33,633 nt of DNA. Origin: Actinomycetota bacterium. Its GTDB lineage: Bacteria; Actinomycetota; Actinomycetes; Actinomycetales; Dermatophilaceae. Position numbers and translations under genes: made by a program. This document shows, in pieces, positions 10,070-24,314 of the stretch; within the stretch, counting starts at the first letter, position 1; every line of letters starts with the position of its first letter. The stretch covers positions 1 through 33,633 of the forward strand of contig JAIUNK010000039.1 of the NCBI GenBank assembly GCA_020161845.1. The letters are read 5' to 3'. The notes below the pieces were generated by a model. It worked only from the letters and a program-made list of their open reading frames with translations, was not told the origin of the DNA and searched no databases.

Positions 10070-11065
10070 TCATGCGGTGGACTCTAGAGCCGATCCCGCA
10101 GGAGCGGCGGCAGGCGCAGCGAGGTCCTGCAGGGAACGCACCGCCAACGCCACGACGACGCTCGACGTCACCGTGAGCAGCACCCACGCCAGGGCCGTCG
10201 CCCCAGCGCCCAGATGCGGCACCATCACGATCACCGCAGTAGTCAGCGCGGCCAGCGGGAAGGACAGCGCCCACCACGGCGGACCATAAGGCGCCTTTGC
10301 GACCCTGGGGGCACAGCCCAGCAGAAGCGCGGCGAACGTCGCAGCGCCGGCCAACAGCACCCAGGAATGCCAGCCACCGGTGCTCGACGGCAGGAGAGAA
10401 TGGGCCGCCACCAGGGCCACGGCGGGCGGGGCGATCAGGATCGCGAACACCGGTCGCAGGTGGCCCGGAACCGGCTGCGGGACCAAGATGTAACGCCCGA
10501 GGATGAGCGGCAAGAGGGCGAGGTAGAAGGCCACTCCGACGCCGAAGGCGATCCAGGACAGCGTGCGGCTACCGATCTGCGGCCCGGCCAGCGGGGTGAC
10601 CAGATTGCCGACGATGGGGATGAACCACGTGGGCAGGACCTGGGGCAGGGTCAGGTGACTCCCACCGAACCAGGACGTCAGGACGGCGACCGTGATCGCC
10701 AGGTGGGCCAGGGCCGCTGGCCACCAGATCACGGTGGCCAGCGCGGGTGCGGGTGTCGCAAAGGCCGTCGCGACCAGGAGCAGCGCCACCGTGATGGCTG
10801 CCGCGAACGGCATCCGCACGGGGTCGGTGATCTCCGCGCGCACCACGTCGGAGAAGCGGATGGCCTTGGCGACGTAGAGCACCGCGAGGGTCAGCCACAG
10901 CAGCGCTGCCACCACCGCGAGGACGTCGGCGACACTGCTTGGCGCAGCCAGTTGGTGACTCGCTCGGCGCCAGGCGAGTGACAGCCCGGCGATGCCCATC
11001 ACCACGGCGAACAGCCCGACCGGGGGCCTGCTGAATCGAGCGCGGAGAGCGGCCTGGGTCGTCAT
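10070..11065 (-). CDS. TDT/SLAC1-family transporter (TehA-like)
   Basis: A 331-aa protein with about ten hydrophobic segments. SRPPVGLFAVVMGIAGLSLAW at the N-terminus and the mid-protein LPTWFIPIVGNLVTPLAG are characteristic of the tellurite resistance/dicarboxylate transporter (TDT) family, which includes TehA, the plant anion channel SLAC1 and the fungal sulfite pump Ssu1. Given the sulfur genes that follow, sulfite or another anion is a plausible substrate, but that is inference. ATG 11065 is used; ATG 11080 is possible. It is divergent from a hypothetical gene, with a TGTCAGG palindrome 62 bp upstream. Confidence 0.8.
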   Translation of the reverse strand: MTTQAALRARFSRPPVGLFAVVMGIAGLSLAWRRASHQLAAPSSVADVLAVVAALLWLTLAVLYVAKAIRFSDVVRAEITDPVRMPFAAAITVALLLVATAFATPAPALATVIWWPAALAHLAITVAVLTSWFGGSHLTLPQVLPTWFIPIVGNLVTPLAGPQIGSRTLSWIAFGVGVAFYLALLPLILGRYILVPQPVPGHLRPVFAILIAPPAVALVAAHSLLPSSTGGWHSWVLLAGAATFAALLLGCAPRVAKAPYGPPWWALSFPLAALTTAVIVMVPHLGAGATALAWVLLTVTSSVVVALAVRSLQDLAAPAAAPAGSALESTA

Positions 11066-11126
11066 GGTGAAGGTCCTCATTCTCGATAGGCAGGGGCGAT
11101 TGATGTTGTCACCAACCATCCCTGGG

Positions 11127-11144
11127 TGTCAGGTATTCCTGACA
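11127..11144. promoter_or_regulatory. TGTCAGG-N4-CCTGACA palindrome
   Basis: TGTCAGGTATTCCTGACA has perfect 7-bp arms with a 4-bp centre. It lies between the divergent TDT transporter gene and the hypothetical gene that follows. The same 18-bp form is seen at 14166 and 18311 and twice at 17409-17451, which argues for a shared DNA-binding protein. The regulator is not identified. Confidence 0.65.
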
Positions 11145-11202
11145 ACCGAAAAGGCCCGGGGCGGGCCAACGGAACCGCCCCCGCCCTTGCCGCCGGTGGA
11201 AT

Positions 11203-11220: not shown

Positions 11221-11614
11221 GGTTGGACACGGCATGATCGCCGCTGATGTCGCGCGCCGGCTCGATGCCGCGCACCGGGTCGCGTTGCAGCAGTGGGTCA
11301 CCGACGCCGATGGTCGCAGCAGCTGTCGGCGCGGCGGAACGGACGCCACCGATCTGCAGATCAAGGTCAGCGAGGGGGCCGCGGTGGCCCTGCGGGACGC
11401 GCGTCGGTGTGTCGAGCGGGGCGGCCGGACGCCCACCGAGGCGATCCGGTTCGTACTCGGGCAATGGCAGGAGATGGCCACGTTTCGGCGAACCCCAGAT
11501 TGGGTTGCCTATGTGGATGGGGGTCGCTCGGCCCTGATTCGGTTCCTGGCCGAGCTGGAGGCCGCTCGCCCGGCGGGCGGCGCGGAGCCGACGACCCCGG
11601 CCCCGGGCCAATAG
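11219..11614 (+). CDS. Hypothetical protein
   Basis: A 131-aa protein from ATG 11219; ATG 11234 is an alternative, and an in-frame GTG at 11126 would run through the palindrome at 11127 and is disfavoured. It is soluble and mostly helical: MIAADVARRLDAAHRVALQQW, a central LQIKVSEGAAVALRDARR, and VLGQWQEMATFRRTPDWVAY. It has two neighbouring-region cysteines and no motif I recognise. The position, divergent from the TDT gene with a shared TGTCAGG box, suggests it is co-regulated with the sulfur island. Repeated CCCCGGCCCCGGGCCA(A/G)TA follows its stop. Confidence 0.55.
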   Translation: MVGHGMIAADVARRLDAAHRVALQQWVTDADGRSSCRRGGTDATDLQIKVSEGAAVALRDARRCVERGGRTPTEAIRFVLGQWQEMATFRRTPDWVAYVDGGRSALIRFLAELEAARPAGGAEPTTPAPGQ

Positions 11615-11670: not shown

Positions 11671-12048
11671 TCAGGCGGACGGTGCGTCGGCCTGCGCCTT
11701 TGCCACCTCGGCCCGAACGGCGGTCATGTCCAGATTGCGCACCGCGCTGATGAGTTCTTCCAGCGACGGGGCAGGTAGGGCGCCCGGCTGATTGAAGACC
11801 AGAATCCCGTCCCGGAAGGCCATCAAGGTCGGGATCGAGGTGATCTGTGCGGCCGCGGCGAGCTCCCGTTCGGCTTCGGTGTCAACCTTGCCGAAGACGA
11901 TGTCGGGATGGGTCTGCGACGCGGTCTCGAAGATCGGCCCAAACATCCGGCATGGGCCGCACCAGCTGGCCCAGAAGTCCACCAGAACGATCCCCTCCCC
12001 GGCGATCGTCTCCTCGAAGTTGTGCCTGGTGAGTGTTGTGGTGCTCAT
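11671..12048 (-). CDS. Thioredoxin
   Basis: A 125-aa protein with the complete thioredoxin fold: VLVDFWASWCGPC places the redox cysteines at 30 and 33, and ITSIPTLMAF carries the cis-Pro loop. A C-terminal extension of about 20 residues follows the usual end. It is the last gene of a minus-strand run (membrane protein, AhpD-like, CstR-like, thioredoxin) and starts 24 bp after the regulator. In this setting it probably reduces persulfidated or oxidised proteins, or regenerates the AhpD-like protein or peroxiredoxin nearby. The family call is firm; the partners are inferred. Confidence 0.93.
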   Translation of the reverse strand: MSTTTLTRHNFEETIAGEGIVLVDFWASWCGPCRMFGPIFETASQTHPDIVFGKVDTEAERELAAAAQITSIPTLMAFRDGILVFNQPGALPAPSLEELISAVRNLDMTAVRAEVAKAQADAPSA

Positions 12049-12072: not shown

Positions 12073-12438
12073 TCACGAGAGCGCGAGGAAGAGTTTCTCC
12101 ATCGCTTTGAGGTCGTCGCTGGTGGCGCCGGGGGAGGTGACGCACTGGCGGACGGCGGCCTCGAGGAGCACGAAACCGCTCCGGTCGATGGCCTTTTTCA
12201 CGGCTGCCAGCTGATGCACGACCTCGCGGCACCCCCGCCGCTCTTCGAGCATCGTGGCCACCGCGCCGAGCTGGCCCTGGGCCCGGCGAAGCCGCAGGAC
12301 GACCTGCTCGAGCTCGTGGCTGTCGAGGGCCAGCTCGCCCGTGGTGACGTCGCCGGTGGTGACGTCGCCGGTGGTGACATCGCCGGTGGTGACATCGGCG
12401 GCCGCGCGTTTGGCGTGACGCTCCGCCGAGGCGGTCAT
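12073..12438 (-). CDS. cstR: CsoR/FrmR-family repressor, CstR (persulfide-sensor)-like
   Basis: A 121-aa regulator. LRLRRAQGQLGAVATMLEE is the first DNA-binding helix of the DUF156 family, followed by Cys70 (RRGCREVVHQL) and Cys99 (EAAVRQCV). The 29-residue spacing equals Cys31-Cys60 of staphylococcal CstR and Cys36-Cys65 of mycobacterial CsoR. The copper-ligand His of CsoR, four residues before the second Cys, is Ala95 here, so Cu(I) sensing is unlikely and persulfide sensing through the Cys pair is favoured. The N-terminus bears a VTTGD repeat. ATG 12438 overlaps the preceding stop by 4 bp. Its probable operators are six 16-bp boxes in this window. Confidence 0.82.
   Translation of the reverse strand: MTASAERHAKRAAADVTTGDVTTGDVTTGDVTTGELALDSHELEQVVLRLRRAQGQLGAVATMLEERRGCREVVHQLAAVKKAIDRSGFVLLEAAVRQCVTSPGATSDDLKAMEKLFLALS
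12336..12397. repeat. 15-bp tandem repeat in the CstR-like gene
   Basis: GCCGGTGGTGACGTC or ATC units occur four times in a row, with the first slightly diverged. On the minus strand they encode (VTTGD)n in an N-terminal extension, residues 16-34, ahead of the conserved fold. The extension is absent from typical CsoR-family proteins of 85-100 residues. Confidence 0.8.
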
Positions 12439-12803
12439 GACGGTGCCTGGTCCTTGGGCGGGGTGTAGAAGTCCATGAAAGCGGCCAGCGCCCGTGGCCC
12501 GTAGACGGTGCCCGGCCCGCCGACCATCAAGATCGCGACGCCGATCGCTTCGGCCGCTTCTTGGGGGGTGGCCCCGGCGCGCGCTGCGCCTCGGGCATGG
12601 GAGGCGATGCACCCGTCGCACTTCAAGCCGACGCCCATGGCCATGGCCATCAGCTCCTTGGTCTTGGTGTCGAGGGCCCCGGCGGTCAACGCGCCCTTGT
12701 GGGTGGCGGCGAACCCGGCGTACACGTCGGGGATCAGGGCGCGCAGCTCGCGGGTGTGCGGGCCGAGGTCCTCCAGGACCTGCTTGCCGTGGGAGTGGGT
12801 CAT
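12435..12803 (-). CDS. Carboxymuconolactone decarboxylase/AhpD-like CxxC protein
   Basis: A 122-aa helical protein. ATG 12803 is preceded by GAAAGGAGCCCCGAG, a strong ribosome binding site. LKCDGCIASHARGAARAG contains Cys62-x-x-Cys65-x-x-x-His69, the redox motif of the AhpD-like branch of the CMD family rather than the decarboxylase branch. Such proteins act as thiol-disulfide peroxidase reductants. The stop codon overlaps the ATG of the CstR-like gene (ATGA), so the two are probably translationally coupled. It likely serves thiol redox repair in the persulfide response; the specific partner is unknown. Confidence 0.85.
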   Translation of the reverse strand: MTHSHGKQVLEDLGPHTRELRALIPDVYAGFAATHKGALTAGALDTKTKELMAMAMGVGLKCDGCIASHARGAARAGATPQEAAEAIGVAILMVGGPGTVYGPRALAAFMDFYTPPKDQAPS

Positions 12804-12852: not shown

Positions 12853-14076
12853 TCAGACGGGGGCGACGGCCGCGACGGCCGGTTCGAGGCTGCTGGAGCC
12901 GGCCGGCTGTCCACCCATGAGCTTGCGGTTCAGGATCGTCAGGGTACGGATGGTCACCAGCTGGACCAGTGCCACGACGGCCACCAGGCCGTAGTGCGGG
13001 ACCGAGTCGCGCGCGATGATGCCCGGCTCGACGAGGCCCCAGTGGATGAAGAACATGAGCAGGACGGACAGAGCGACCCCGGGGCAGATCAGACCGTACG
13101 CGGCGACACTGCGTCGCGGCCCGGTCACATAGGTGGCGAAGTAGGCCTGGCGGCGCATGATGGCGTAGCCGAACAGGCCCATCACCAGCTGCGCTGCCAC
13201 CAAGAGGCCGAAGAAGACGAACCACACCACCGGGTTCACCGTCGCATGCAGCAGGGTGTGCGAAGTGCCCATCACGTCACGCAGCACGGTGATGCCGACC
13301 AGGGTCATGATCGGGATGCCCAGCCACAGGGTGGGGCCCGCCTCGACCGCCATACCGTGGCGCAGCATTCCGGCGAAGGCGACCGGCAGCTTGACCAGGA
13401 TCCACGCGGCAGCGGCGGCCAGGAAGATGAACGTTCCGACCAGGCCGATGACCACGACCGGCTTGGTGCTGCTCATCGCCGCGGAGGAGGAGTAGCCGAC
13501 GGCGATCATCGCGAAGGCGAAGCTCGGCAGGACCTGACTGAAGTGGTTGGTGTCCTCGATGTCGAAGCCCTTGTGAACCAGGATGCGGGTCAGGTAGCGC
13601 CCGAACACGACGAGCGCGTAGCCGGCGATCCCCGTCATCGCGAGCAGGGCGACGGGGAAGAGGTACTCCTTGGCGGCCCACATGCCGGGAATCGCCAGTG
13701 CGCCCACGACGAATGCGACGTTGACGCTCATGCCGAGCGTGAGGGGGATGGCCATCAGCGAGATCTCGGCGTTGCTCGCGCGGAAGGCGACGTACTCGGG
13801 GGTCCGCGTGAAGGCTCGGTAGGCGCGGATGTTGGCGATCAGGACCTGGTAGTGCCGCACCGCGAAGAAGAACGTGAGGCCGAGGATCACGCTCAGGAAC
13901 ACCCGACTCGGCACCGTGCCGTCGCGGTAGGCCGCGAGGACGTGGCTCAGGTGTGGGATGGGTGAGCCCGGGTGGGGGATCAGGAACATCAGGTAGACGA
14001 AGAACGAGACCGACAGCCCGCCCATGCCCAATGCGGCCAGGAAGTACAGCGGACGGTATGCGACGGAGAAGCGCAC
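12853..14076 (-). CDS. Polytopic membrane protein of unknown function
   Basis: A 407-aa protein with about ten membrane helices. GTG 14076 is chosen because AAAGGAGCCCCTC precedes it, the same ribosome-binding context as the next gene; a longer start would run into the operator region. Recognisable conserved-looking stretches are YFLAALGMGGLSVSFFVYLM, RTPEYVAFRASNAEISLMA and NHFSQVLPSFAFAMIAVGY. I cannot place it firmly; it recalls a family some databases label TsoY, but that name is from memory. It is the first gene of the minus-strand CstR run and faces the SQR-like gene across two CstR boxes and a TGTCAGG box. Transport or quinone-linked membrane function is possible. Confidence 0.65.
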   Translation of the reverse strand: MRFSVAYRPLYFLAALGMGGLSVSFFVYLMFLIPHPGSPIPHLSHVLAAYRDGTVPSRVFLSVILGLTFFFAVRHYQVLIANIRAYRAFTRTPEYVAFRASNAEISLMAIPLTLGMSVNVAFVVGALAIPGMWAAKEYLFPVALLAMTGIAGYALVVFGRYLTRILVHKGFDIEDTNHFSQVLPSFAFAMIAVGYSSSAAMSSTKPVVVIGLVGTFIFLAAAAAWILVKLPVAFAGMLRHGMAVEAGPTLWLGIPIMTLVGITVLRDVMGTSHTLLHATVNPVVWFVFFGLLVAAQLVMGLFGYAIMRRQAYFATYVTGPRRSVAAYGLICPGVALSVLLMFFIHWGLVEPGIIARDSVPHYGLVAVVALVQLVTIRTLTILNRKLMGGQPAGSSSLEPAVAAVAPV

Positions 14077-14108: not shown

Positions 14109-14124
14109 ATACCCCCTGGGGCAT
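14109..14124. promoter_or_regulatory. Putative CstR box 1
   Basis: ATACCCCCTGGGGCAT is a near-palindromic 16-mer with a C-tract facing a G-tract, the form of CsoR/CstR-family operators. It lies 33 bp before the GTG of the minus-strand membrane-protein operon that encodes the CstR-like regulator itself, which suggests autoregulation. Confidence 0.72.
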
Positions 14125-14141: not shown

Positions 14142-14157
14142 ATACCCCGGGGGGTAC
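14142..14157. promoter_or_regulatory. Putative CstR box 2
   Basis: ATACCCCGGGGGGTAC begins 33 bp after the start of box 1, about three helical turns, so both boxes face the same side of the DNA. It is placed to control both the minus-strand operon and the SQR-like gene. Confidence 0.72.
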
Positions 14158-14165
14158 ATTGGCAA

Positions 14166-14183
14166 TGTCAGGTTCACCTGACG
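14166..14183. promoter_or_regulatory. TGTCAGG-N4-CCTGACG palindrome
   Basis: TGTCAGGTTCACCTGACG matches the 18-bp element at 11127 and 18311 apart from the last base. It lies 54 bp before the start of the SQR-like gene and 9 bp from CstR box 2, so this divergent promoter seems to integrate two signals. Confidence 0.65.
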
Positions 14184-14236: not shown

Positions 14237-15694
14237 GTGTCCCGCACGGTCATCCTGGGCGCTGGGGTCGCCGGCCACACGGCCGCGCTACACCTGAGGC
14301 GCCTTCTCGGACGCAGCCACGAGATCGTGGTCGTCTCACCCAACAGCGAATGGAACTGGATCCCGTCCAACATCTGGGTCGGTGTGGGCGACATGACCGC
14401 CGACAAGGTGCTGTTTCCCCTGGCGCCGGTGTACCGCCGCAAGGGGATCGACTTCCACCAGGCCAAGGCCGTCGCGATCCGCCCGGAGGGGGACGGCGAG
14501 GACCCGCGACCCAGCGTGGAGATCGTCTCCACGCAGGAGGGCCGCGAGGGTGAGTCGACCCGACTGCGCTATGACTACCTGGTCAACGCGACGGGTCCCC
14601 GGCTGAAGTTCGAGGCGACGCCCGGATTGGGTCCCGAGCAGGGCCATACCGTGTCGGTCTGTACGGCAGACCATGCCACCCACGCCGCCGCCGAACTGCA
14701 GGCCGCCATCACGCGCATGCGCGAGGGCGAGACGTTGCGGCTCGTGGTCGGCACCGGACACGGCTCGTGCACCTGCGAGGGTGCCGCCTTCGAATACGTC
14801 TTCAACGTCGACCACACCCTGCGCCAGGCAGGCGTCCGGGACCGGGCCGAACTGGTCTATCTCACCAACGAGTTCGAGCTCGGCGACTTCGGAGTCGACG
14901 GAGCGACCTTCGACGAGCGGGGGTTCCAGACCTCCAGCAAGCTGTGGACCGAATCCCTCTTCCGCGAGCGAGGCGTGCGCGCCATCACCGGTGCCGGCGT
15001 CCAGCACATCGAGGCGGGGTCGCTGACCTACGAGCTCCTTGACGGCACGGTGGAGACCTTGACCTTCGACTTCGCGATGCTGCTGCCGCCCTTCGGCGGG
15101 GTCGGCCTGCAGGCGTTCGATCGCGCGGGCGAGGACATCACCGACCGGCTGTTCGCCCCGAGCGGATTCATGTACGTCGACGCCGAGTACGCCCCGCGAG
15201 CCTACGAGAACTGGCGGCCCGATGACTGGCCGCGGACCTACCAGAGCCCGCACTACGACAACATCTGGGCGGTCGGGATCGCGTTCGCGCCACCCCACCC
15301 GATCTCCCCTCCCCGCACCAGCCCGAACGGCACCGTGATCGCGCCCGCCCCACCGCGCACCGGCATGCCGTCCGGGGTGATGGGCAAAGCCGTGGCCATG
15401 ACCATCGCGGACCGGGTCCGCCGCGGCGCCCACGCGAAGGCGCACACCGCCTCGATGGCGGCGATGGGCGCGGCCTGCGTCGCTTCTGCCGGCACCGGGC
15501 TACGCAAGGGGTCCGCGGCGGCGATCACCATGCTGCCCGTGGTGCCGGACTACCAGCGCTATCCCACCGGACGCGATCTCTCGGAGACCAAGGGCGAGCT
15601 GGGGCTGGCCGGGCACTGGCTCAAGCTCAGCCTGCACCACCTTTTCCTCTACAAGAACAAGGGACTGCCCGGCTGGTCCCTGATCCCGGAGTGA
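14237..15694 (+). CDS. SQR-like FAD/NAD(P)-binding oxidoreductase
   Basis: A 485-aa flavoprotein. GTG 14237 is preceded by AGAGGAGG and yields MSRTVILGAGVAGHTAALHL with the FAD GxGxxG motif. NATGPRLKFEATPGL, GSCTCEGAAFEYVFNVDHTL and the late MPSGVMGKAVAMTIADRV follow the layout of sulfide:quinone oxidoreductases and FCSD flavoproteins. Cysteines at 142, 178 and 180 are candidates for the persulfide-carrying site; the last of the three canonical SQR cysteines, near residue 350, is not evident, so substrate use may differ. The C-terminal HHLFLYKNKGLPGW is probably a membrane-association segment. Two CstR boxes and a TGTCAGG box precede it. Confidence 0.8.
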   Translation: MSRTVILGAGVAGHTAALHLRRLLGRSHEIVVVSPNSEWNWIPSNIWVGVGDMTADKVLFPLAPVYRRKGIDFHQAKAVAIRPEGDGEDPRPSVEIVSTQEGREGESTRLRYDYLVNATGPRLKFEATPGLGPEQGHTVSVCTADHATHAAAELQAAITRMREGETLRLVVGTGHGSCTCEGAAFEYVFNVDHTLRQAGVRDRAELVYLTNEFELGDFGVDGATFDERGFQTSSKLWTESLFRERGVRAITGAGVQHIEAGSLTYELLDGTVETLTFDFAMLLPPFGGVGLQAFDRAGEDITDRLFAPSGFMYVDAEYAPRAYENWRPDDWPRTYQSPHYDNIWAVGIAFAPPHPISPPRTSPNGTVIAPAPPRTGMPSGVMGKAVAMTIADRVRRGAHAKAHTASMAAMGAACVASAGTGLRKGSAAAITMLPVVPDYQRYPTGRDLSETKGELGLAGHWLKLSLHHLFLYKNKGLPGWSLIPE

Positions 15695-15698: not shown

Positions 15699-15878
15699 AT
15701 GACGGACGCCAAGGACAAGGCCGTGGTCGGCGACATCGCCCGCCAGATCAGCAGCGCCCCGTTGCCCACCGAAGCGACCCTGCGACGTCGGCAGAGTCTG
15801 CCGTTGCAGACGCTGCGCTTCGCCGCCCTCAACGCCCGGATCATGCGGATGGTGCTCAAGGGCCACCACGGGACCTGA
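15699..15878 (+). CDS. Small basic protein, unknown, coupled to SQR-like gene
   Basis: A 59-aa frame starting at ATG 15699, 4 bp after the SQR-like stop, with GAGTGAG close upstream. The product begins MTDAKDKAVVGDIARQISS and continues with an Arg-rich helix (TLRRRQSLPLQTLRFAALNARIMRMV). It has no membrane segment or Cys. The spacing and consistent codon use suggest it is real and co-translated. It could be an accessory or docking peptide for the flavoprotein; I recognise no family. Its last 24 bases are tandemly duplicated just after the stop. Confidence 0.6.
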   Translation: MTDAKDKAVVGDIARQISSAPLPTEATLRRRQSLPLQTLRFAALNARIMRMVLKGHHGT

Positions 15879-17019: not shown

Positions 17020-17364
17020 ATGCAGACCGACGAGGCGGTCAAGGCGCTCGCACGGGCGTGTCGATCCGTGCGTGAGGCTCAGGCGAGGCTCGAGCAGTCC
17101 GTGCGCGATGCTCGAGCGGCCGGCGCCACGTGGTCCCAGATCGGCGACGCGACCGGGATGAGCCGGCAGTCGGCTCACGAGCGCTGGGGGCACCTCCCCC
17201 GACTGGGCTGCCCGCGGCAGGACTGCGACTGCACGGCGCACGGCGGGGGTGGCTGTGGCTGTGGCCACGGTCCCGGCGGTGGCCGCGGCGGCGGTCGCAG
17301 TCGCGGCCGCGCACCTGGTTCCGCGCCGATCCAGAACGTTCGCATCGGGCCTCGGCCCGCCTGA
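17020..17364 (+). CDS. Helix-turn-helix protein with Cys/Gly/His-rich tail
   Basis: A 114-aa protein. ATG 17020 has GGAGG 4 bp upstream; ATG 17008 lies four codons earlier without such a site. Residues 1-60 include VREAQARLEQSVRDARAAGA then TWSQIGDATGMSRQSAHERWG, a clear helix-turn-helix of the kind found in small actinobacterial DNA-binding proteins. The remainder, PRQDCDCTAHGGGGCGCGHG, is Cys/His/Gly-rich and ends in Arg/Gly. It may be a metal- or redox-responsive regulator; its targets are unknown. The divergent gene encodes a protein with a similar tail. Confidence 0.65.
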   Translation: MQTDEAVKALARACRSVREAQARLEQSVRDARAAGATWSQIGDATGMSRQSAHERWGHLPRLGCPRQDCDCTAHGGGGCGCGHGPGGGRGGGRSRGRAPGSAPIQNVRIGPRPA

Positions 17365-17407: not shown

Positions 17408-17452
17408 TTGTCAGGATTCCCTGACACTAGCAGTGTCAGGGAATCCTGACAA
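17408..17452. terminator. Perfect 21-bp hairpin built from two TGTCAGG palindromes
   Basis: Each half contains an 18-bp TGTCAGG-N4-CCTGACA element (17409-17426 and 17434-17451), and together they form a perfect 21-bp stem with a 3-nt loop AGC. It lies between convergent genes ending at 17364 (+) and 17545 (-), so it would be a good bidirectional terminator. The same 18-bp element elsewhere lies in promoter regions, so a regulatory double site is the other reading. The 90 bases after it hold no gene. Confidence 0.7.
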
Positions 17453-17544: not shown

Positions 17545-18264
17545 TCACCGCCGGTGGATGCGCTCCTGGATCTCCTCCAGCGGCAGTTCCTTGGTGCAGA
17601 AGAACCAGTCCTCGCACTCGACCCCCGCGTCGGCGCCGGCCATCCGGTCCTTGGCCGTGCCGCAGGAACCGGCCGGCGGGACGATGACGCGCTCGCCGGG
17701 CTGCCAGTCAGCCGGCAGGGCGACGTTGAAAGCGTCCGCCACCTGCAAGCCCTTGACGATCCGCAAGAGTTCGTCGAAGTTACGGCCCAGCGCCAGCGGG
17801 TAATACACAATGGTGCGGATCACGCCGTGCGGGTCGATAAAGAAGACCGCGCGCACGGCCTGGGTGGCCGCTTCGCCGGGCATGATCATCCCGTACTTCT
17901 GCGCGATCTCCATCGAGACGTCATCGATCAACGGGAATGTGACCTCGACGTTCGACATCCCGCGGAAGGAGATCTTCTCCTGGATCGTGCGTAGCCAGGC
18001 GATGTGGCTGTAGAGCCCGTCGACGGAGAGGCCGACCAGCTCGGTGTTGTGCAGCGCGAAGTCCTCGGCCATCGTCGCGAAGGTCATGAACTCGCTCGTG
18101 CACACCGGGGTGAAGTCTGCCGGGTGCGAAAACAGGATGACCCATTTGCCTTCGTAGTCGGCCGGGAAGCTGATGTCGCCCTGCGTGGTCTTCGCGGTGA
18201 AGGCCGGGGCCTTGTCGCCAATGCGGGGCATGCCGACGGTCTGGTCGACGGGGGACGTGGTCAT
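17545..18264 (-). CDS. Peroxiredoxin, Prx6/AhpC-TSA type
   Basis: A 239-aa thiol peroxidase. SHPADFTPVCTSEF places the peroxidatic Cys at 55 within the PxxxTxxC motif, and the long C-terminal arm (PLALGRNFDELLRIV, VIVPPAGSC, CEDWFFCTKE) is typical of the archaeal/bacterial Prx6 group. Further cysteines at 201, 217 and 223 could act as resolving residues. It reduces H2O2 and organic peroxides, and members of this fold can also reduce persulfide-derived oxidants. A TGTCAGG box lies 47 bp upstream in the region shared with the Fe-S gene. GAGGAGTCC precedes the ATG. Confidence 0.92.
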   Translation of the reverse strand: MTTSPVDQTVGMPRIGDKAPAFTAKTTQGDISFPADYEGKWVILFSHPADFTPVCTSEFMTFATMAEDFALHNTELVGLSVDGLYSHIAWLRTIQEKISFRGMSNVEVTFPLIDDVSMEIAQKYGMIMPGEAATQAVRAVFFIDPHGVIRTIVYYPLALGRNFDELLRIVKGLQVADAFNVALPADWQPGERVIVPPAGSCGTAKDRMAGADAGVECEDWFFCTKELPLEEIQERIHRR

Positions 18265-18310: not shown

Positions 18311-18328
18311 CGTCAGGATTTCCTGACA
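18311..18328. promoter_or_regulatory. CGTCAGG-N4-CCTGACA palindrome
   Basis: CGTCAGGATTTCCTGACA is the 18-bp element again, located between the divergent peroxiredoxin and Fe-S genes and nearer to the peroxiredoxin. It differs from the consensus only at the first base. Confidence 0.65.
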
Positions 18329-18471: not shown

Positions 18472-18487
18472 ATACCCCCAGGGGCAT
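18472..18487. promoter_or_regulatory. Putative CstR box 3
   Basis: ATACCCCCAGGGGCAT differs from box 1 only at the central base. It ends 36 bp before the start of the membrane Fe-S gene, a position suited to repressing that operon. Confidence 0.75.
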
Positions 18488-18523
18488 TCTGGAAAAGTCC
18501 GTCCGACTTTCGAGGTGTTCCCG

Positions 18524-19450
18524 ATGACCACAACCACCCGATCCGACCCCAGCCGGGCGATGCTGCGCAAGCGTTCCATGTCCCGACTGCACTGGGCGCG
18601 CTACGCCACCCAGGCCTTCTTTGCGGTCTTCATCCTGGTGGCCGCGCTCCGACATCAGCAGGAGAAACAGTCCGGAGCGCCCAGCGTCGACGCGCTGTGT
18701 CCGTTCGGGGCGGTCGAGTCGCTCTACACCTGGGTGACCACCGGCACGATGGTGCCCAAGTTGCACCCGAGCAACATGATCCTCGGCGCCGCGGTCCTGG
18801 TCAGCGTGCTGATCGCCGGGAATGCGTTCTGCGGTTGGATCTGTCCGATGGGCACGCTCGGGGACGTGCTGACCGGGCTGCGCCGGCGCCTCGGGCTGCG
18901 CGCCGTTGCAGTCCCGGATCGGGTGGATCGGGTGCTGCGCTACGGCCGGTACGTCGTGCTGGCCGCCGTCGTGATCGCGACGGTGCAGACGGGGCGGCTG
19001 ATCTTCGCCGAGTACGACCCCTATGTGACCCTGTTCTCCCTGCACTGGATCTTCGAGATGTCGAGTGCGTTGATCCCGGCGCTGGTCATCACCGTGGTGG
19101 TGCTCGCCGGCTCCCTGGTCGTCGATCGGCTGTGGTGCCGCTATCTGTGCCCGGCCGGGGCGGTCTTCGCGGTAGCGGGCCACCTGTCGTTCCTGCGGAT
19201 CCGACGGCACGCCTCCGCCTGCACCGATTGCGGGCTGTGCAACCCGCCGTGCCCGGTCGGCATCGACGTCGCGCACGCCCAGACCGTCAACACCGACTGC
19301 GTCGGCTGCATGGAGTGCGTGGCGACCTGCCCGTTCCCCGGTGCCCTCACCGTCACCGGGCCCACCTTCCTGGGCTCGATCGGCCGCCGGGGCGACGGCG
19401 ACGCCGCCGCGGGCCCCGAGTCGGCGACGTCGACGGTGGCACAGCGATGA
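18524..19450 (+). CDS. NapH-like membrane 4Fe-4S protein
   Basis: A 308-aa membrane protein with about four or five helices. It has Cys103xxxCys107-Pro (CGWICPMG) and Cys205xxxCys209-Pro (CRYLCPAG) near membrane ends, then two ferredoxin-type clusters, Cys233/236/239/243 and Cys259/262/265/269. This is the NapH/MauN/YccM layout, which moves electrons from quinol across the membrane to redox partners. ATG 18524 follows CGAGGTGTTCCCG. The gene overlaps the next by ATGA. In this island it may feed electrons to, or accept them from, sulfur-compound turnover; its true partner is unknown. Confidence 0.85.
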   Translation: MTTTTRSDPSRAMLRKRSMSRLHWARYATQAFFAVFILVAALRHQQEKQSGAPSVDALCPFGAVESLYTWVTTGTMVPKLHPSNMILGAAVLVSVLIAGNAFCGWICPMGTLGDVLTGLRRRLGLRAVAVPDRVDRVLRYGRYVVLAAVVIATVQTGRLIFAEYDPYVTLFSLHWIFEMSSALIPALVITVVVLAGSLVVDRLWCRYLCPAGAVFAVAGHLSFLRIRRHASACTDCGLCNPPCPVGIDVAHAQTVNTDCVGCMECVATCPFPGALTVTGPTFLGSIGRRGDGDAAAGPESATSTVAQR

Positions 19451-20133
19451 GCAGGGCGTCCCGTGGCGTGCCCGCCCACCGACTGGTGATGCCCGCTGTC
19501 GCGGTGGTGGCGATCTTCGGAACGTACGGCGTCACGTCGGCCACCGGCGTCTGGCAGTCCAGCGGCCGTACCGAGGTCACCAGCGACTCGCTCGCGCCCG
19601 CAGACCTCAAGGGATGGATGACGGTGCAGCAGGCCAGCGACGGTCTCGGCGTCGATATCCCCACGCTGCTGCGACTCGCCGGAGCCGACGCGGCAACCGC
19701 AGCAGCGGTGACGCCGGACACCCCGCTGAATCAGCTCGAGGCCACGCTGGGCGGCTTCTCGATGGAGGCGTTCCGAGCGGCTGTGACGGCCCATCTCACG
19801 TCCGGTGGCGCGCCCGCGCCGTCGGGGCCCTCCCCGTCCGCACTGCCCAGCACCGGCGCCTCGGGCGGTTCGGCGAGCCCGCATCCGTCGGGGACGGGCA
19901 CGGGGTCGCGGACGGGCGCCGCCTCGCCCAGCGGGACGGGATCGGCGTCCGGAGTGACGGGGCAGATGACGTTGGCGCAGGTCGCCTCGGCGTACGGCAT
20001 GGCACTGCCCGACCTCCTGGCCAAGGCCGGTCTGCCCGCCGATGCCCCGACCGACGTGCCGCTGCGGACGCTCAAGGATCGCTATCCGGACTTCGAGATC
20101 GCCACGGTGCGCACGGCCGTCGGCGCCGGCTGA
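19447..20133 (+). CDS. Membrane-anchored protein with two copies of a small helical domain
   Basis: A 228-aa protein. Residues 11-33 form a signal anchor. Two related domains follow: residues 56-115 (GWMTVQQASDGLGVDIPTLL) and 172-226 (GQMTLAQVASAYGMALPDLL), joined by a Gly/Ser/Thr/Pro linker. Each reads like the extracytoplasmic domain sometimes appended to NapH-like 4Fe-4S proteins. The start overlaps the upstream stop (ATGA), so it is made with the Fe-S protein and is probably its periplasmic partner. No cofactor-binding residues (CxxCH, His clusters) are visible. Confidence 0.65.
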   Translation: MSRASRGVPAHRLVMPAVAVVAIFGTYGVTSATGVWQSSGRTEVTSDSLAPADLKGWMTVQQASDGLGVDIPTLLRLAGADAATAAAVTPDTPLNQLEATLGGFSMEAFRAAVTAHLTSGGAPAPSGPSPSALPSTGASGGSASPHPSGTGTGSRTGAASPSGTGSASGVTGQMTLAQVASAYGMALPDLLAKAGLPADAPTDVPLRTLKDRYPDFEIATVRTAVGAG

Positions 20134-20295: not shown

Positions 20296-21141
20296 TCAGC
20301 TGCTGGCGCCCGCGCCGCGCCGCGCCATCGCCCCGGGACCCATGCCCTGTCCGGAGCTGCCCTGGCCCTGACCCGTTTGGCCCTGGCCCTGACCCTTTTG
20401 GCCCTGGCCCTGACCCTTTTGGCCCCGGCCCTGTTGGCCTTGACCGTTCTGGCCCTGGCCCTGCCCGTTCTGGGCGCCGGCGCCGCCGACCTGCCCGGCG
20501 ACCGCCCGCTCGTAAGCGGCCAGGTGGTTGCGCGAGCCCTTCAGCAGGTTGGCGTAGCTGGCCTTGACGTCGGCCGGCGCGTCAGCGGCCACCAGCTTCT
20601 CCAGGTCGGCGATGTCGCGCTGCTCCAGCTCGACGCCCACCTGGTAGGCCGCCTGGGGCGAGACGATGCCGCGCGTATACCAGTCGTCGTACAGCTTCTG
20701 CAGCTCGGCGTCCGCATAACTGCCGGCCTCCCGCCCGGCGGAGGGGTCGGCGATGCCGTAGCGGGTCAGCAGCGTCCCGATCTCGTCGAAGTGGCGCTGC
20801 TCACTCGTCGTGATCATGCTCATCGGCCGAGCCCCGTCATGCACCGCGGCGAGCGCGGCGTAGAGGTCGCGCGCCATCCGCTCCTCCTCGCGGCTGAACG
20901 TCAGGCCCGCGATCGTCTCCGCTGACAGCGACGCGACGGGGGTGCCCGGCGTTGCGGTGGACGACGCGACGGGGCACCCGCCGGAGCCGGGGCCGTTCGA
21001 GCCGGTGCCGGGGCCGCCGGCGCCAGGGCCTCCGGCGGCGTAGGCGGAGCCGGCGAGGGTGGCCGCCAGGGCGAGGCCGGTCAGCGATGCCGCTCCGATC
21101 AGCGCGGGTCGGCTGGGGGCCTTGCGGCTGCGGGTGAACAT
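20296..21141 (-). CDS. Secreted DUF2202 (ferritin-like) protein
   Basis: A 281-aa exported protein. ATG 21141 has CAAAGGAG upstream and starts a signal peptide ending near SAYAAGG. Residues about 68-225 form the DUF2202 four-helix domain: FSREEERMARDLYAAL, SEQRHFDEIG, ELEQRDIADLEKL and LKGSRNHLAAYE carry the Glu/His pattern of a possible di-iron or metal site. The C-terminal 60 residues are a GQGQ/GQGQK repeat. The function of DUF2202 is not established. A CstR box lies 77 bp upstream, placing the protein in the putative persulfide regulon. Confidence 0.85.
   Translation of the reverse strand: MFTRSRKAPSRPALIGAASLTGLALAATLAGSAYAAGGPGAGGPGTGSNGPGSGGCPVASSTATPGTPVASLSAETIAGLTFSREEERMARDLYAALAAVHDGARPMSMITTSEQRHFDEIGTLLTRYGIADPSAGREAGSYADAELQKLYDDWYTRGIVSPQAAYQVGVELEQRDIADLEKLVAADAPADVKASYANLLKGSRNHLAAYERAVAGQVGGAGAQNGQGQGQNGQGQQGRGQKGQGQGQKGQGQGQTGQGQGSSGQGMGPGAMARRGAGASS
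20338..20482. repeat. Gly/Gln-coding tandem repeat
   Basis: Units of the type GGCCCTGGCCCTGACC(C/G)TTTT are repeated and encode the GQGQ/KGQGQ tail of the DUF2202 protein. The repeat stays in frame. Confidence 0.75.
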
Positions 21142-21217: not shown

Positions 21218-21233
21218 ATGCCCCCGGGGGTAT
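21218..21233. promoter_or_regulatory. Putative CstR box 4
   Basis: ATGCCCCCGGGGGTAT is the same 16-mer class in reverse orientation (its complement begins ATACCCCC). It is 77 bp upstream of the DUF2202 start. TTGACA at 21234-21239 overlaps its right edge and could be a -35 element reading toward the dioxygenase gene. Confidence 0.72.
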
Positions 21234-21391
21234 TTGACATCTTCACTATCGGAGCCGAGCCTGTGCCCGGCCTGTGTGGCCGGCCAGAGCGTCGTATGTG
21301 ATGTCCCAGACAGATCGGGCGCCCGGCCAGAGGGTGTGCGGCGCGGGACTCGGCCGGAGGCGGGGTCGGAATGGCGGTGGGTGCCGAGTTG

Positions 21392-21407
21392 ATACCCCCT
21401 GGGGCAC
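21392..21407. promoter_or_regulatory. Putative CstR box 5
   Basis: ATACCCCCTGGGGCAC matches box 1 except at the last base. It is 69 bp before the dioxygenase-rhodanese start. Confidence 0.75.
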
Positions 21408-21431
21408 GCCGTACAGTGGCACCGATGGCAG

Positions 21432-21447
21432 ATACCCCCCAGGGTAT
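21432..21447. promoter_or_regulatory. Putative CstR box 6
   Basis: ATACCCCCCAGGGTAT starts 40 bp after box 5, close to four helical turns, and 29 bp before the ATG of the dioxygenase gene. The 334-bp gap 21142-21475 thus holds three boxes and otherwise nothing recognised. Confidence 0.75.
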
Positions 21448-21475
21448 GTCCAGACCCCGCTGGAGGAACCTTCAT

Positions 21476-22867
21476 ATGCCGCACATCGTCACCATCGAGA
21501 CCCCGTCGCTCGGCGACCGCAGCTATCTCGTCCACGACGGCTCGGTCGCCTTCGTCGTGGACCCGCAGCGCGACATCGACCGGGTCCTGGCCGCGGCCCG
21601 GAGCGCCACCGCGGACGGCGTACGCATCGCCGCCGTCTTCGAGACCCACATCCACAACGACTATGTCACCGGCGGCTACGCGCTGGCCCGCGAGACCGGG
21701 GCGACGTACTACGTCAACGGCGCCGACACCGTCGACTTCGACCGCACCCCCATCGCCGACGGCGAGACCGTCGAGGTCGGGTCCATGCGGGTGCGCGCCA
21801 TCGCGACGCCGGGGCACACGTTCACGCACCTGTCGTACGCCGTGGCGGGCGACGCCGCTGAAGGCACCGCCACGGGGACGAGCACGGCCACGGCCGTCTT
21901 CACCGGCGGCTCGCTGCTGTTCGGATCGACCGGCCGCCCGGACCTGCTCGGCGCGGCGCACGCCGAGGAACTCGCCCGCCACCAGCACGCCAGCGCCCAC
22001 CGCCTCGCTGCCGAACTGCCCGACGAGGCGCAGGTCATGCCCACGCACGGCTTCGGCTCGTTCTGCTCGGCCACCCAGAGTTCCGGCGACGCCTCGACGA
22101 TCGGCCAGGAGAAGCGCGCCAACCCGGCGCTGACCAAGGACGAAACGGACTACGTCGAGGAGATCCTGGCCGGGTTGGAGGAGTTCCCCGCCTATTACGC
22201 GCACATGGGCCCCGCCAATGCCGCCGGCCCGCTCGCCGCGAGCCTGGAGCCGCCGACGACGGCGGACGTGGCGCAGCTGCGCCGCCGCCTGGAGGCGGGG
22301 GAGTGGCTGGTGGACCTGCGCAGCCGTACGGCGTTCGCCGCGGGCCACGCGCCGGGGACGTTCAACTTCGGGATCGACGGGCAGTTCGCGACCTACCTGG
22401 GCTGGCTGATTCCGTGGGGCACGCCGGTGACCCTGCTCGGCGAGACCGCGGAGCAGGTCGCGGAGGCTCAGCGGGAGATGGTCCGGATCGGCATCGACCG
22501 GCCCGCCGCCGCGGCCACCGGCGGCCCCACGAACTGGACCGATGGCGAGCTGGCGTCCTTCCCACGGGCGACATTCCCCGACCTCGCGCAGGTGCGGCAC
22601 CACCGCGAGGTGGTGGTCGTGGACGTCCGGCGGCCGGGGGAGTACGCCGAGTCGCACATCGACGGGGCGGTCAATCTGCCCCTGCATGACCTGCTGCGCC
22701 GCGCGGACGACGTACCGGCCGGCGAACTGTGGGTGCACTGCGCCGGCGGCTACCGGGCCTCGATCGCCGCGTCCATGTTCGCCGCCGCCGGTCGCCCCGT
22801 CGTGGCCATCGACGACCAGTTCGACAACGCCGGCACGTCCGGCCTGACCCTGACGGAGCAGAAGTGA
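21476..22867 (+). CDS. Persulfide dioxygenase-like MBL protein with two rhodanese domains
   Basis: A 463-aa fusion from ATG 21476 (GGAGGA upstream). Residues 1-240 are a metallo-beta-lactamase fold of the ETHE1/persulfide dioxygenase group: His58, His60 and Asp62 (THIHNDYVTGG), His114 (PGHTFTH) and His191 (PTHGFG). Residues about 260-350 are a rhodanese-like domain with no Cys at the active loop, probably inactive. Residues about 370-460 are a second rhodanese with Cys422 (VHCAGGYRAS). It would oxidise low-molecular-weight persulfide to sulfite and transfer sulfane sulfur to it, making thiosulfate, functionally akin to CstB. Two CstR boxes precede it and the downstream gene overlaps by 4 bp. 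Confidence 0.9.
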   Translation: MPHIVTIETPSLGDRSYLVHDGSVAFVVDPQRDIDRVLAAARSATADGVRIAAVFETHIHNDYVTGGYALARETGATYYVNGADTVDFDRTPIADGETVEVGSMRVRAIATPGHTFTHLSYAVAGDAAEGTATGTSTATAVFTGGSLLFGSTGRPDLLGAAHAEELARHQHASAHRLAAELPDEAQVMPTHGFGSFCSATQSSGDASTIGQEKRANPALTKDETDYVEEILAGLEEFPAYYAHMGPANAAGPLAASLEPPTTADVAQLRRRLEAGEWLVDLRSRTAFAAGHAPGTFNFGIDGQFATYLGWLIPWGTPVTLLGETAEQVAEAQREMVRIGIDRPAAAATGGPTNWTDGELASFPRATFPDLAQVRHHREVVVVDVRRPGEYAESHIDGAVNLPLHDLLRRADDVPAGELWVHCAGGYRASIAASMFAAAGRPVVAIDDQFDNAGTSGLTLTEQK

Positions 22868-23532
22868 GCACCACCAGCGCCCCTCCCGCAGCCCCTTCCG
22901 CCCCGGCCGGCGCAGACGGCGCAGACGTGACGGACCTGCAGGGCCCCGTCGACCCCACCGCCGTACGGCCCATGCCCACCCGCGTCACCGCCGCCGAGCT
23001 GCGCGAATGGCTCACCCGCCCCGACCGCCCGCGCCTCGTCGACGTCCGTTCGGCCGCCGAGTTCCGCGCCGCGCACATCCCCGGCGCCTACAACGTGCCG
23101 CTGCCGCTCCTCAAGGAGCACCGCGACGAGTTCGCCGAGCCACTCGACGAGCAGGTGGTGCTGATCTGCCGCACCGACAACCGGGCGAGCCAGGCCGAGC
23201 AGGTCCTCGCCGCCGCCGGATTGGGGCGTCTGCACGTGCTCACGGGTGGGATGACCGCCTGGCAGCAGGACAACGGCCCGGTCCGGGAAACCGGCGGGGC
23301 GTGGGACCTGGAACGGCAGGTCCGGCTCGTCGCGGGCGGGCTGGTCGCCTCCGGCGTCCTCGCGAGCACCGTGGCGCCACGGGCCAAGTGGTTCGCCGGC
23401 GCGATCGGCGCCGGGCTCGTCACCGCTGCGCTCACCGATTCCTGCCTGATGGGCGCGCTGCTGGCCAAGATGCCGCACAACCGCAGCCAGGAACCCGACG
23501 CCGCCGACGTGCTCGCGTCGCTGGCCCGCTGA
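22864..23532 (+). CDS. Rhodanese with C-terminal DUF2892 membrane domain
   Basis: A 222-aa protein starting at GTG 22864, which overlaps the upstream stop as GTGA. After a disordered Ala/Pro N-terminus, residues about 40-145 form a rhodanese domain (RLVDVRSAAEFRAAHIPGAY) with catalytic Cys102 in ICRTDNRAS. Residues about 155-205 (WDLERQVRLVAGGLVASGVL, then WFAGAIGAGLVTAAL) form the DUF2892 two-helix membrane domain. It would handle sulfane sulfur at the membrane between the dioxygenase and the exporter. The family architecture is common in sulfide-detoxification operons. Confidence 0.9.
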   Translation: MSTTSAPPAAPSAPAGADGADVTDLQGPVDPTAVRPMPTRVTAAELREWLTRPDRPRLVDVRSAAEFRAAHIPGAYNVPLPLLKEHRDEFAEPLDEQVVLICRTDNRASQAEQVLAAAGLGRLHVLTGGMTAWQQDNGPVRETGGAWDLERQVRLVAGGLVASGVLASTVAPRAKWFAGAIGAGLVTAALTDSCLMGALLAKMPHNRSQEPDAADVLASLAR

Positions 23533-23546
23533 CGGCAGTCGCGGTC

Positions 23547-24314
23547 ATGGGCCAGCTGCTCGCCATCGTCCCGCTCGGCCTGCTCGTCGGCGTCGTCCTG
23601 GGCGCGCTCGGCGGCGGGGGGGCGATCCTGACGGTGCCCATCCTCGTCTACGTTCTGGGCCAGCGGCCCGCCGCCGCCACCGCCGGGTCGCTGGTCATCG
23701 TCTCGCTCACGGCTCTCGCCGGGATGGCGAGCCACGCCCGCAAGGGCAACGTCCGCTGGCGCGACGGCCTGATCTTCGGCGCCGTCGGCGTGGTCGGATC
23801 GCTGATCGGCTCCCGGCTCTCGACGGCGGTGTCCGGTCCGGTGCTGCTCACGGCGTTCGGCGTGATGATGATCGGGGTCGGCATCCTGATGCTGCGGCGC
23901 CGCGCCCGCGGCGGGAACGCTGTGGCCGACGGCGAGCGCCGCGGCGTAGGTGTCCTGGCCGCGACCGCGACCGGGGTGGGCTTCCTCACCGGCTTCTTCG
24001 GGGTCGGCGGCGGCTTCGCCGTCGTCCCCGCGCTCGTGCTGGCGTTGGGGTTCTCGATGCCGGTCGCGGTGGGTACGTCGTTGCTGGTGATCATCGTGAA
24101 CAGCATCGTCGCGCTCGGCGCCCGGGCCGCGGGCGGGCTGGCCATCGACTGGCCCGTCATCCTGGTCTTCAGCGCCTTCGGCGCCATCGGCAGCATCCTG
24201 GGCGGCCGCATCGCCGCCCGGGTGGATCCGCGCCAGCTCAGCCTCGCGTTCAGCATTCTGCTGTTCGCCGTGGCCGCTTACGTCCTCGCCATGAACATCC
24301 CCCAGCTGCGCTGA
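23547..24314 (+). CDS. TauE/SafE-family sulfite/anion exporter
   Basis: A 255-aa protein with about eight membrane helices arranged as two repeats. GALGGGGAILTVPILVYVLG in the first half and GFFGVGGGFAVVPALVLALG in the second are the duplicated signature of TauE/SafE (DUF81) permeases. It starts 14 bp after the rhodanese stop and ends the operon dioxygenase-rhodanese-TauE. Export of sulfite, the product of the dioxygenase, or of a related sulfur anion is the expected job. Confidence 0.9.
   Translation: MGQLLAIVPLGLLVGVVLGALGGGGAILTVPILVYVLGQRPAAATAGSLVIVSLTALAGMASHARKGNVRWRDGLIFGAVGVVGSLIGSRLSTAVSGPVLLTAFGVMMIGVGILMLRRRARGGNAVADGERRGVGVLAATATGVGFLTGFFGVGGGFAVVPALVLALGFSMPVAVGTSLLVIIVNSIVALGARAAGGLAIDWPVILVFSAFGAIGSILGGRIAARVDPRQLSLAFSILLFAVAAYVLAMNIPQLR

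What the first reader, a model, noticed from the sequence alone, without database searches (positions are those of the whole stretch)
10070..24314. A complete-looking sulfide/persulfide detoxification island
Within 14 kb are an SQR-like flavoprotein, a persulfide dioxygenase with two rhodanese domains, a membrane rhodanese, a TauE/SafE exporter, a thioredoxin, an AhpD-like CxxC protein, a Prx6 peroxiredoxin, a TDT/SLAC1 channel and a CstR-like regulator. Known cst loci (Staphylococcus) are shorter. This version adds a NapH-like Fe-S protein with a repeat-domain partner, a DUF2202 protein and a polytopic membrane protein, all next to matching operator boxes. The set as one regulon in an actinobacterium seems undescribed, though I cannot check the literature.
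Basis: partly seen in the sequence, partly recalled or inferred. Interest (0 to 1): 0.85.

Follow-up and report, generated by a model that had tools for sequence, protein, structure and literature searches.

The report
Sulfide-detox island with two operators
An actinobacterium carries a cluster of genes that look made for disposing of toxic sulfide, and the cluster seems to be switched by two repressors: a known type of sulfur sensor and a small, uncharacterised DNA-binding protein whose likely target sequence was found nowhere else in this genome.

Summary
The gene set is real. It is an actinobacterial version of the known CstR/CsoR-like persulfide circuit: SQR relatives occur in 19 of 186 same-family genomes, and CstR-type boxes precede SQR in 17 of 20 relative loci (control 0). 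A four-gene version is published for Streptomyces coelicolor, so the kind is known.

Two things were missed. A 59-residue protein follows SQR in 19 of 20 relative loci. The boxes are of two kinds: CstR boxes and an 18-bp palindrome, TGTCAGG-N4-CCTGACA, found (up to 1 mismatch) five times in the 4.39-Mb genome, all in this island: before SQR, TDT and Prx6, plus a twin site.

I trace the palindrome to a small ClpC2/RelI-type helix-turn-helix family with one member in the island (17020-17364). In 87 loci centred on such genes, it lies upstream of 9 of 11 members with recognition motif R/K-Q-S (permuted controls 0) but 1 of 50 with R/K-Q-A, of which 11 carry the published ClpC2-type operator. The island member is RQS-type with a cysteine-rich tail.

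So a second repressor probably overlays CstR. No binding or sulfur sensing was tested. The polytopic protein is a TsoY-family member.

The parts
10070..11065 (-). TDT/SLAC1-type transporter (candidate sulfite/anion exporter); palindrome in its promoter, no CstR box within 300 nt
   Evidence: Pfam SLAC1 7.7e-40 on ORF 10070-11119; box distances
11127..11144 (.). Palindrome TGTCAGGTATTCCTGACA, 61 nt before TDT and 89 nt before the + strand ORF 11234-11614
   Evidence: Exact match; distances
11234..11614 (+). 126-aa ORF of unknown function, divergent from TDT; possible member, no family match
11671..12048 (-). Thioredoxin, last gene of the probable TsoY-CMD-CstR-Trx operon
   Evidence: Pfam 6e-25
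12073..12438 (-). CstR-like CsoR-family repressor
   Evidence: Pfam PF02583 1.1e-18 on the longer ORF 12073-12621; both Cys kept, CsoR His position is Ala in the alignment to 4m1p
12435..12803 (-). AhpD/CMD-like protein with CDGC motif
   Evidence: Pfam CMD 6.3e-20
12853..14076 (-). TsoY-family polytopic membrane protein (function unknown)
   Evidence: NF047644 430 bits, cut-off 150
14109..14124 (.). CstR box, 32 nt before TsoY (divergent region with SQR)
14142..14157 (.). CstR box, 79 nt before SQR
14166..14183 (.). Palindrome TGTCAGGTTCACCTGACG, 53 nt before SQR (89 nt before the divergent TsoY)
   Evidence: One mismatch
14237..15694 (+). SQR-like flavoprotein (485 aa)
   Evidence: PDB sulfide-quinone reductases 7.8e-40; 19 of 186 family genomes
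15699..15878 (+). 59-aa cationic SQR-companion protein, no Pfam or NCBIfam match
   Evidence: After SQR in 19 of 20 relative loci; no family hit
17020..17364 (+). 114-aa ClpC2/RelI-type HTH protein, recognition motif SRQSAHERW, Cys-rich tail; proposed second repressor
17409..17426 (.). Palindrome, first half of a perfect 45-bp inverted repeat
   Evidence: Exact match
17434..17451 (.). Palindrome, second half, 25 bp from the first
   Evidence: Exact match
17545..18264 (-). Prx6-type peroxiredoxin; palindrome 46 nt upstream, nearest CstR box 207 nt upstream
   Evidence: Pfam 9.8e-32; NF009668 323 bits, cut-off 211
18311..18328 (.). Palindrome, 46 nt before the Prx6 start
   Evidence: One mismatch
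18472..18487 (.). CstR box, 36 nt before the NapH-like gene (207 nt before the divergent Prx6)
18524..19450 (+). NapH-like 4Fe-4S membrane protein
   Evidence: Pfam Fer4_5 on ORF 18173-19450; TIGR02163 111.7 bits, below cut-off 213
19447..20133 (+). Partner protein with two copies of a repeat domain (by eye), ATGA overlap with the NapH-like gene
   Evidence: No family hit; read from the sequence
20296..21141 (-). DUF2202 protein
   Evidence: Pfam 7.9e-29 on ORF 20296-21246; box upstream in 3 of 3 relative loci
21218..21233 (.). CstR box, 76 nt before DUF2202
21432..21447 (.). CstR box, 28 nt before PDO; a weaker copy lies at about 21392-21407 (by eye)
21476..22867 (+). CstB-like persulfide dioxygenase with two rhodanese domains
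   Evidence: Pfam two Rhodanese stretches on ORF 21371-22867; 3tp9 2.6e-56
22864..23532 (+). Membrane rhodanese
   Evidence: Pfam Rhodanese 1.1e-19 and YgaP-like_TM 5.5e-9
23547..24314 (+). TauE/SafE exporter
   Evidence: Pfam 2.6e-49

Best explanation
This is an H2S/persulfide disposal island of an actinobacterium with two layers of repression. Layer 1 is the conserved CstR circuit: the CsoR-family repressor sits on RTACC-N6-GGTAY boxes before the TsoY-CMD-CstR-Trx genes, SQR, NapH, DUF2202 and PDO-rhodanese-TauE, and is presumably released when sulfane sulfur modifies its cysteines. Then SQR makes persulfide, PDO oxidises it to sulfite, rhodaneses and Trx/CMD/Prx6 handle the rest, and TauE and TDT export sulfite. 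Layer 2 is a small ClpC2/RelI-type HTH repressor (17020-17364), proposed to bind TGTCAGG-N4-CCTGACA before TDT, SQR and Prx6. SQR would answer to both repressors, TDT to the second alone, and Prx6 mainly to the second. Shown here: gene identities, both box sets, conservation of layer 1, and the link between RQS-type HTH genes and this palindrome. Inferred: binding, repression, the sulfur signal (perhaps through the Cys-rich tail), and enzyme activities.
For: Layer 1: families; boxes genome-wide 16, control 0; conservation in 20 relative loci, control 0; same operator shown for S. coelicolor ScCsoR (PMC7533328, passages). Layer 2: 5 palindromes (up to 1 mismatch) in 4.39 Mb, all inside 7.2 kb, control 0. 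Exact palindromes in 18 other genomes (6 of 395; 12 of 393; the samples overlap); an HTH relative lies downstream of the palindrome in 12 of 18, one of them weak, in several 3 nt before the start codon. Reverse test from HTH genes: 9/11 RQS-type against 1/50 RQA-type; the RQA type has the ClpC2 operator CGTCAAC-N5-GTTGACG in 11/50 against 0/11. Controls with 100 permuted half-sites each, same windows: mean 0.00 of 11 and 0.15 of 50, maximum 3. HTH profile matches RelI 2.9e-13 and Rv2667/ClpC2 4.4e-4. ClpC2 represses itself through such a palindrome next to its start codon (PMC10030653, passages). In this genome only the island member is RQS-type among the 4 members with a readable helix, of 8 hits.
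Against: The island HTH gene has no palindrome within 300 nt upstream of itself; the twin site lies after its stop, between convergent genes. The palindrome is in none of 20 relative sulfide loci, so its link to sulfide genes rests on one genome. By the 300-nt rule used on the relatives, Prx6 here does have a CstR box, 207 nt upstream. The contig carries another possible regulator, a PadR-like frame at 32376-33023 (Pfam 2.2e-6), 14 kb from the nearest palindrome. No relative with the Cys-rich tail was found among 394 class genomes; the one other hit at E<=1e-9 is a short RQS protein without such a tail. The tail is predicted disordered. The 11 RQS-type loci include related pairs, so they are not 11 independent events. 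Six of 18 palindrome loci show no HTH neighbour. With a looser core and one mismatch the genome has 31 sites against 7 for the control, so weaker sites elsewhere are not excluded. Foldseek found no significant fold match for the HTH model.
Confidence: 0.68

Rival explanations
1. The island is a plain CstR regulon. The palindrome is the site of another regulator (for example the PadR-like protein at the right end of the contig, a NarL/NreC-type response regulator or a TetR protein), and the HTH gene nearby is a bystander.
For: Bacillus licheniformis pairs a CstR-like repressor with the NreBC two-component system on its sqr cluster (PMC9918477, abstract and sections 6 and 13). A PadR-like frame lies at 32376-33023. 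The HTH gene is not autoregulated here in the usual position.
Against: The palindrome tracks RQS-type HTH genes in other genomes, with permuted controls at 0. The PadR-like frame is 14 kb away beyond transposase genes.
Confidence: 0.22
2. The palindromes are relics or RNA hairpins (terminators, attenuators) or traces of a mobile element rather than operators.
For: The twin site is a perfect 45-bp inverted repeat between convergent genes, and the contig carries transposase genes further right.
Against: Three of five sites sit 46-61 nt before start codons; no copies with up to 1 mismatch elsewhere in the genome; elsewhere the same palindrome sits before HTH genes.
Confidence: 0.1

Closest known systems
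Streptomyces coelicolor ScCsoR circuit (PMC7533328, passages)
   Same: Actinobacterial CsoR-like sensor, PDO, rhodanese and sulfite transporter; operator ATACC-n6-GGTAT
   Different: Four genes, set apart by its authors from circuits that hold SQR; no TsoY, TDT, DUF2202, Prx6, 59-aa protein or second operator in the passages I saw
Staphylococcus aureus cst operon (CstR/CstA/CstB/SQR/TauE; recalled, cited in PMC7533328)
   Same: CstR-type sensor, PDO-rhodanese fusion, SQR, TauE
   Different: Shorter; no second palindromic operator that I know of (recalled)
Bacillus licheniformis yrkD-nreBC-sqr-pdo cluster (PMC9918477)
   Same: CstR-like repressor plus a second regulator that acts on sqr
   Different: The second regulator there is a two-component system responding to sulfide, not a one-component small HTH protein
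ClpC2 autorepressor (PMC10030653) and RelI antitoxin (PMC13284704) HTH family
   Same: Same HTH family by profile; palindromic operator beside the start codon, often in twins (ClpC2)
   Different: ClpC2 operator is CGTCAAC-N5-GTTGACG; here TGTCAGG-N4-CCTGACA, set before sulfide genes instead of its own gene; Cys-rich tail; RelI paper reports no inverted repeat upstream of its operon
TsoY family (seleno)protein NF047644 (selenoprotein TsoY is listed in PMC13188914, passage)
   Same: Window protein scores far above the family cut-off
   Different: Complete frame without a stop, so no UGA-encoded residue needed; here under a CstR box

Membership tests
CstR (persulfide-sensing CsoR-family repressor) | CsoR/DUF156 family | tested here: met
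   Pfam PF02583 1.1e-18; InrS and CsoR structures
CstR (persulfide-sensing CsoR-family repressor) | Two conserved Cys, without the copper-ligand His of CsoR | tested here: met
   Alignment to 4m1p: both Cys kept, His position is Ala (meaning of the His recalled)
CstR (persulfide-sensing CsoR-family repressor) | Operator RTACC-N6-GGTAY before sulfide genes | tested here: met
CstR (persulfide-sensing CsoR-family repressor) | Released from DNA by persulfide/polysulfide | not testable with these tools
   needs gel shift
CstB-type PDO-rhodanese | Metallo-lactamase PDO domain plus two rhodanese-type domains | tested here: met
Sulfide:quinone oxidoreductase | Homology to solved SQR with catalytic Cys positions | tested here: inconclusive
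   7.8e-40 to 3sz0; two Cys regions align, the C-terminal Cys lies outside the aligned stretch
ClpC2/RelI-type HTH | Sequence homology to the family HTH | tested here: met
ClpC2/RelI-type HTH | Palindromic operator immediately upstream of its own gene (ClpC2) | tested here: not met
   No site within 300 nt upstream of 17020; twin site after its stop
ClpC2/RelI-type HTH | Clp N-domain (ClpC2) or adjacent RelS toxin (RelI) | tested here: inconclusive
   No Clp domain among Pfam hits of the protein; right-hand neighbour is Prx6; no search for RelS was run
TsoY family NF047644 | Score above curated cut-off | tested here: met
   430.2 against 150 bits

The most novel reading that the evidence does not exclude
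The 114-aa protein is the first member of the ClpC2/RelI-type HTH family wired to sulfur metabolism: a small persulfide- or redox-sensing repressor (through CxC clusters in its tail) that has taken TDT, Prx6 and part of SQR control away from CstR. The family also has a readable specificity switch, one residue of the recognition helix (Q-A against Q-S) choosing GTCAAC-N5-GTTGAC or GTCAGG-N4-CCTGAC.
Probability: 0.4. Interest if true: 0.75.

Novelty: new variant of a known kind. Interest (0 to 1): 0.6.

Why it matters
It links an uncharacterised operator to a family of small actinobacterial regulators across many genera and gives a testable rule for their DNA specificity. It also adds TsoY, DUF2202 and a 59-residue SQR companion to the likely bacterial persulfide response, so their functions can be tested directly.

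Tried and rejected
Split SQR matches in G017, G181 and G103 looked like programmed frameshifts. Reading the frames showed a frame change, an unresolved base and a missing stretch, so assembly error is likelier.

TsoY structure: the model has mean pLDDT 43.6 from two sequences, so no fold search was run on it. Foldseek with the HTH model gave nothing at E<=0.001. TsoY in genome contigs gave one relative; TsoY relatives on three plasmids of Pseudomonadota and Campylobacterota showed no CstR box in the fetched stretches.

Literature: searches for the palindrome as text, for small HTH regulators and for RelI by name listed no paper on this operator; I saw only titles and abstract starts there. 'Not in print' is limited to those searches and that open-access library.

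Considered and rejected: palindrome as CstR site (no G/C core, different geometry); NapH and its repeat partner as core members (1 of 20 loci).

Full report
1. What is there. The window is a complete contig of 33,633 bases of a 4.39-Mb draft genome in 82 contigs. The polytopic protein without a Pfam name is a TsoY-family protein (NF047644, 430 bits against a cut-off of 150). Two genes were missed: a 59-aa gene directly after SQR (15699-15878) and a 114-aa HTH gene (17020-17364).

2. The CstR layer. Boxes of the form ATACCC-N4-GGGTAT with up to one mismatch occur 16 times in the genome, with 0 for the control. Five are in the window, 28-79 nt before TsoY, SQR, NapH, DUF2202 and PDO. Of the other eleven, two flank a second SQR-CstR-Trx locus on C28 (70% identical SQR), two lie at a PDO/rhodanese/SQR-like locus on C28 near 163 kb, one inside a predicted deacetylase-like frame on C28, one before a CoA-disulfide-reductase-like gene (C5), one before a type III SQR (C54, 599 bits against 525). 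Those on C50 and C59 lie near genes without an obvious sulfur role; the two on C27 were not looked at.

3. Conservation. The SQR (E<=1e-60) occurs in 19 of 186 genomes of the family, own included, in 13 of 53 genera; the three other listed genomes of the same genus lack it. I took 20 of the 21 other SQR places, all but the partial one of G049. They include the second own copy and two genomes with two loci each; the two of G045 (L034, L035) look like copies of one island. Within 300 bp upstream a CstR box precedes SQR in 17/20, PDO 10/10, DUF2202 3/3, Trx 6/8, TDT 5/8, TauE 3/5, Prx6 2/3, CstR 5/11; the control pattern gave 0 throughout. Boxes of divergent neighbours count in this rule, and some contigs are cut, so absences are soft. 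TsoY is rarer: 3 of 186 genomes. A CstR box lies close upstream of it in L059 (Bowdeniella) and L066; none was found in L065, where the contig ends just beyond the gene, or in the three plasmid loci L060-L062. The 59-aa protein follows SQR in 19 of 20 loci with a largely conserved core (APLPT..TLR.RR...Q..RF..FN.R..RMV.KGH); it has no Pfam or NCBIfam match.

4. The second operator. TGTCAGG-N4-CCTGACA with up to one mismatch occurs five times in the genome, all between 11,127 and 18,328; the control is 0. With the shorter core GTCAGG-N4-CCTGAC one further exact site lies on C55 inside a predicted coding frame; with one mismatch there are 31 sites against 7 for the control. The island sites lie 61, 53 and 46 nt before the starts of TDT, SQR and Prx6; a twin site, a perfect 45-bp inverted repeat, lies between the ends of the HTH and Prx6 genes. 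TDT has no CstR box within 300 nt; Prx6 has one 207 nt upstream, 36 nt from the divergent NapH start. In the relatives L030 and L047, TDT and Prx6 lie together and a CstR box lies about 90 bp before Prx6. None of the 20 relative sulfide loci has the palindrome.

5. Who owns it. Exact palindromes occur in 6 of 395 other genomes of the order sample and 12 of 393 of the class sample (the samples share some genomes). In 12 of these 18 loci an HTH gene related to the island's lies downstream of the palindrome (L209 weakly), in 6 none was found. For L071 the best query in that call was its own copy, but the island protein also finds it. In L199-L204, L161 (same place as L071) and L174 the palindrome ends 3 nt before the predicted start codon. 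Reverse test: a search with the island HTH protein in 297 genomes gave 101 genomes with E<=1e-4. I took 88 loci other than the window from it (one of them from the own genome), not all listed matches, plus L198 from the pattern search; L198 and one locus without a central match were dropped, leaving 87. Sorted by recognition helix: R/K-Q-S, 11 loci, palindrome (>=12 of 14 within 600 bp upstream) in 9, the other two scoring 11; R/K-Q-A, 50 loci, in 1; other or unread, 26 loci, in 0. An earlier, looser sorting gave 9 of 13 and 1 of 74, Fisher 1.3e-8; related loci make that value optimistic. Controls: 100 permuted half-sites gave a mean of 0.00 of 11 in the Q-S class and 0.10 of 50 in the Q-A class; 40 permuted half-sites over 81 whole loci gave 0-1 loci in 34 cases and 2, 2, 2, 3, 4, 7 in the rest, against 11 (10 without L198) for the real one.

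6. The family. A profile of ten members matches RelI (9sdc, 2.9e-13) and Rv2667/ClpC2 (8ada, 4.4e-4). ClpC2 is an autorepressor with operator CGTCAAC-n5-GTTGACG one to two nucleotides before its gene, often repeated (PMC10030653, passages). RelI homologues are described as a small actinomycete HTH family related to ClpC2 (PMC13284704, passages); that paper found no inverted repeats upstream of its own operon. Testing the ClpC2 operator on my 87 loci: at >=12 of 14, Q-A 11 of 50, others 5 of 26, Q-S 0 of 11; at >=11, 16 of 50, 11 of 26 and 1 of 11. Permuted controls in the Q-A class average 0.15 of 50, maximum 3. So the residue after Q goes with the operator type. The one further class genome with a strong match (G697) also has a Q-S helix, and a 12-of-14 site upstream. 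Within this genome, of eight hits four had a readable helix: island RQS; the others RQA, KQG and RQA, of which the KQG one has a 13-of-14 ClpC2-type site upstream. The island protein is thus the fitting owner of the island palindromes.

7. Mechanism. CstR would release its boxes on persulfidation, as shown for ScCsoR (PMC7533328, passages). SQR feeds persulfide to PDO; sulfite leaves through TauE and TDT; Trx, CMD and Prx6 handle persulfide and peroxide by-products (established roles of the families, recalled). The HTH protein adds a second repressor on SQR, TDT and Prx6. Its tail holds CxC pairs, and four longer relatives (L113, L124, L126, L198) have a single CxC in an N-terminal domain, which suggests but does not show redox or metal sensing. 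The HTH part models as three helices with high confidence and the tail as disordered. Dual control of an sqr cluster has a precedent in B. licheniformis (PMC9918477, abstract and sections 6 and 13).

8. Weak points. The wiring of the palindrome to sulfide genes rests on one genome; the HTH gene lacks the usual self-operator; the twin site is unexplained; Prx6 may also be reached by CstR; a PadR-like frame at the right end of the contig is another possible regulator; no binding or expression data exist.

9. Verdict. A real and conserved sulfide regulon of known kind, with a probable new second control layer, a conserved 59-aa SQR companion, and a regulator-operator rule that can be tested at once.

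Noticed in passing
window 26894-28119 and 31235-31849: Two-ORF transposase (HTH_Tnp_1 plus integrase core) and an IS110-type transposase frame flank a stretch of low G+C (0.55-0.60), suggesting a mobile or recently acquired right end of the contig.
   Followed up: partly
window 32376-33023: PadR-like transcriptional regulator frame (Pfam PF03551 2.2e-6, just above cut-off) near the contig end.
   Followed up: partly
window 28614-29963: Secreted trypsin-like protease-like protein (449 aa) in the low-G+C stretch, judged by eye; no Pfam match at 0.01.
   Followed up: partly
window 8725-10068: GNAT domain fused to a mycothiol-S-transferase domain just beside the island, possibly related to low-molecular-weight thiol persulfides.
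   Followed up: no
L107:3205-4551 (G000 contig C54): A further SQR type in the same genome scores above the cut-off of NF049943 (selenoprotein-subtype SQR III model) with a complete reading frame and a CstR box about 55 bp upstream.
   Followed up: partly
L200-L204: HTH relatives, some of whose C-terminal parts resemble PASTA domains by eye, with the palindrome 3 nt before the start codon; a different possible sensor domain on the same HTH.
   Followed up: no
L068 near 5826-6283: HTH relative with a four-cysteine finger like that of ClpX (by eye), palindrome upstream and a second similar site before a divergent MFS-like transporter.
   Followed up: no
L062 (Aliarcobacter plasmid) 5851-7960: TsoY relative beside short stretches matching TDT, a second case of TsoY near a TDT-type transporter.
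   Followed up: no
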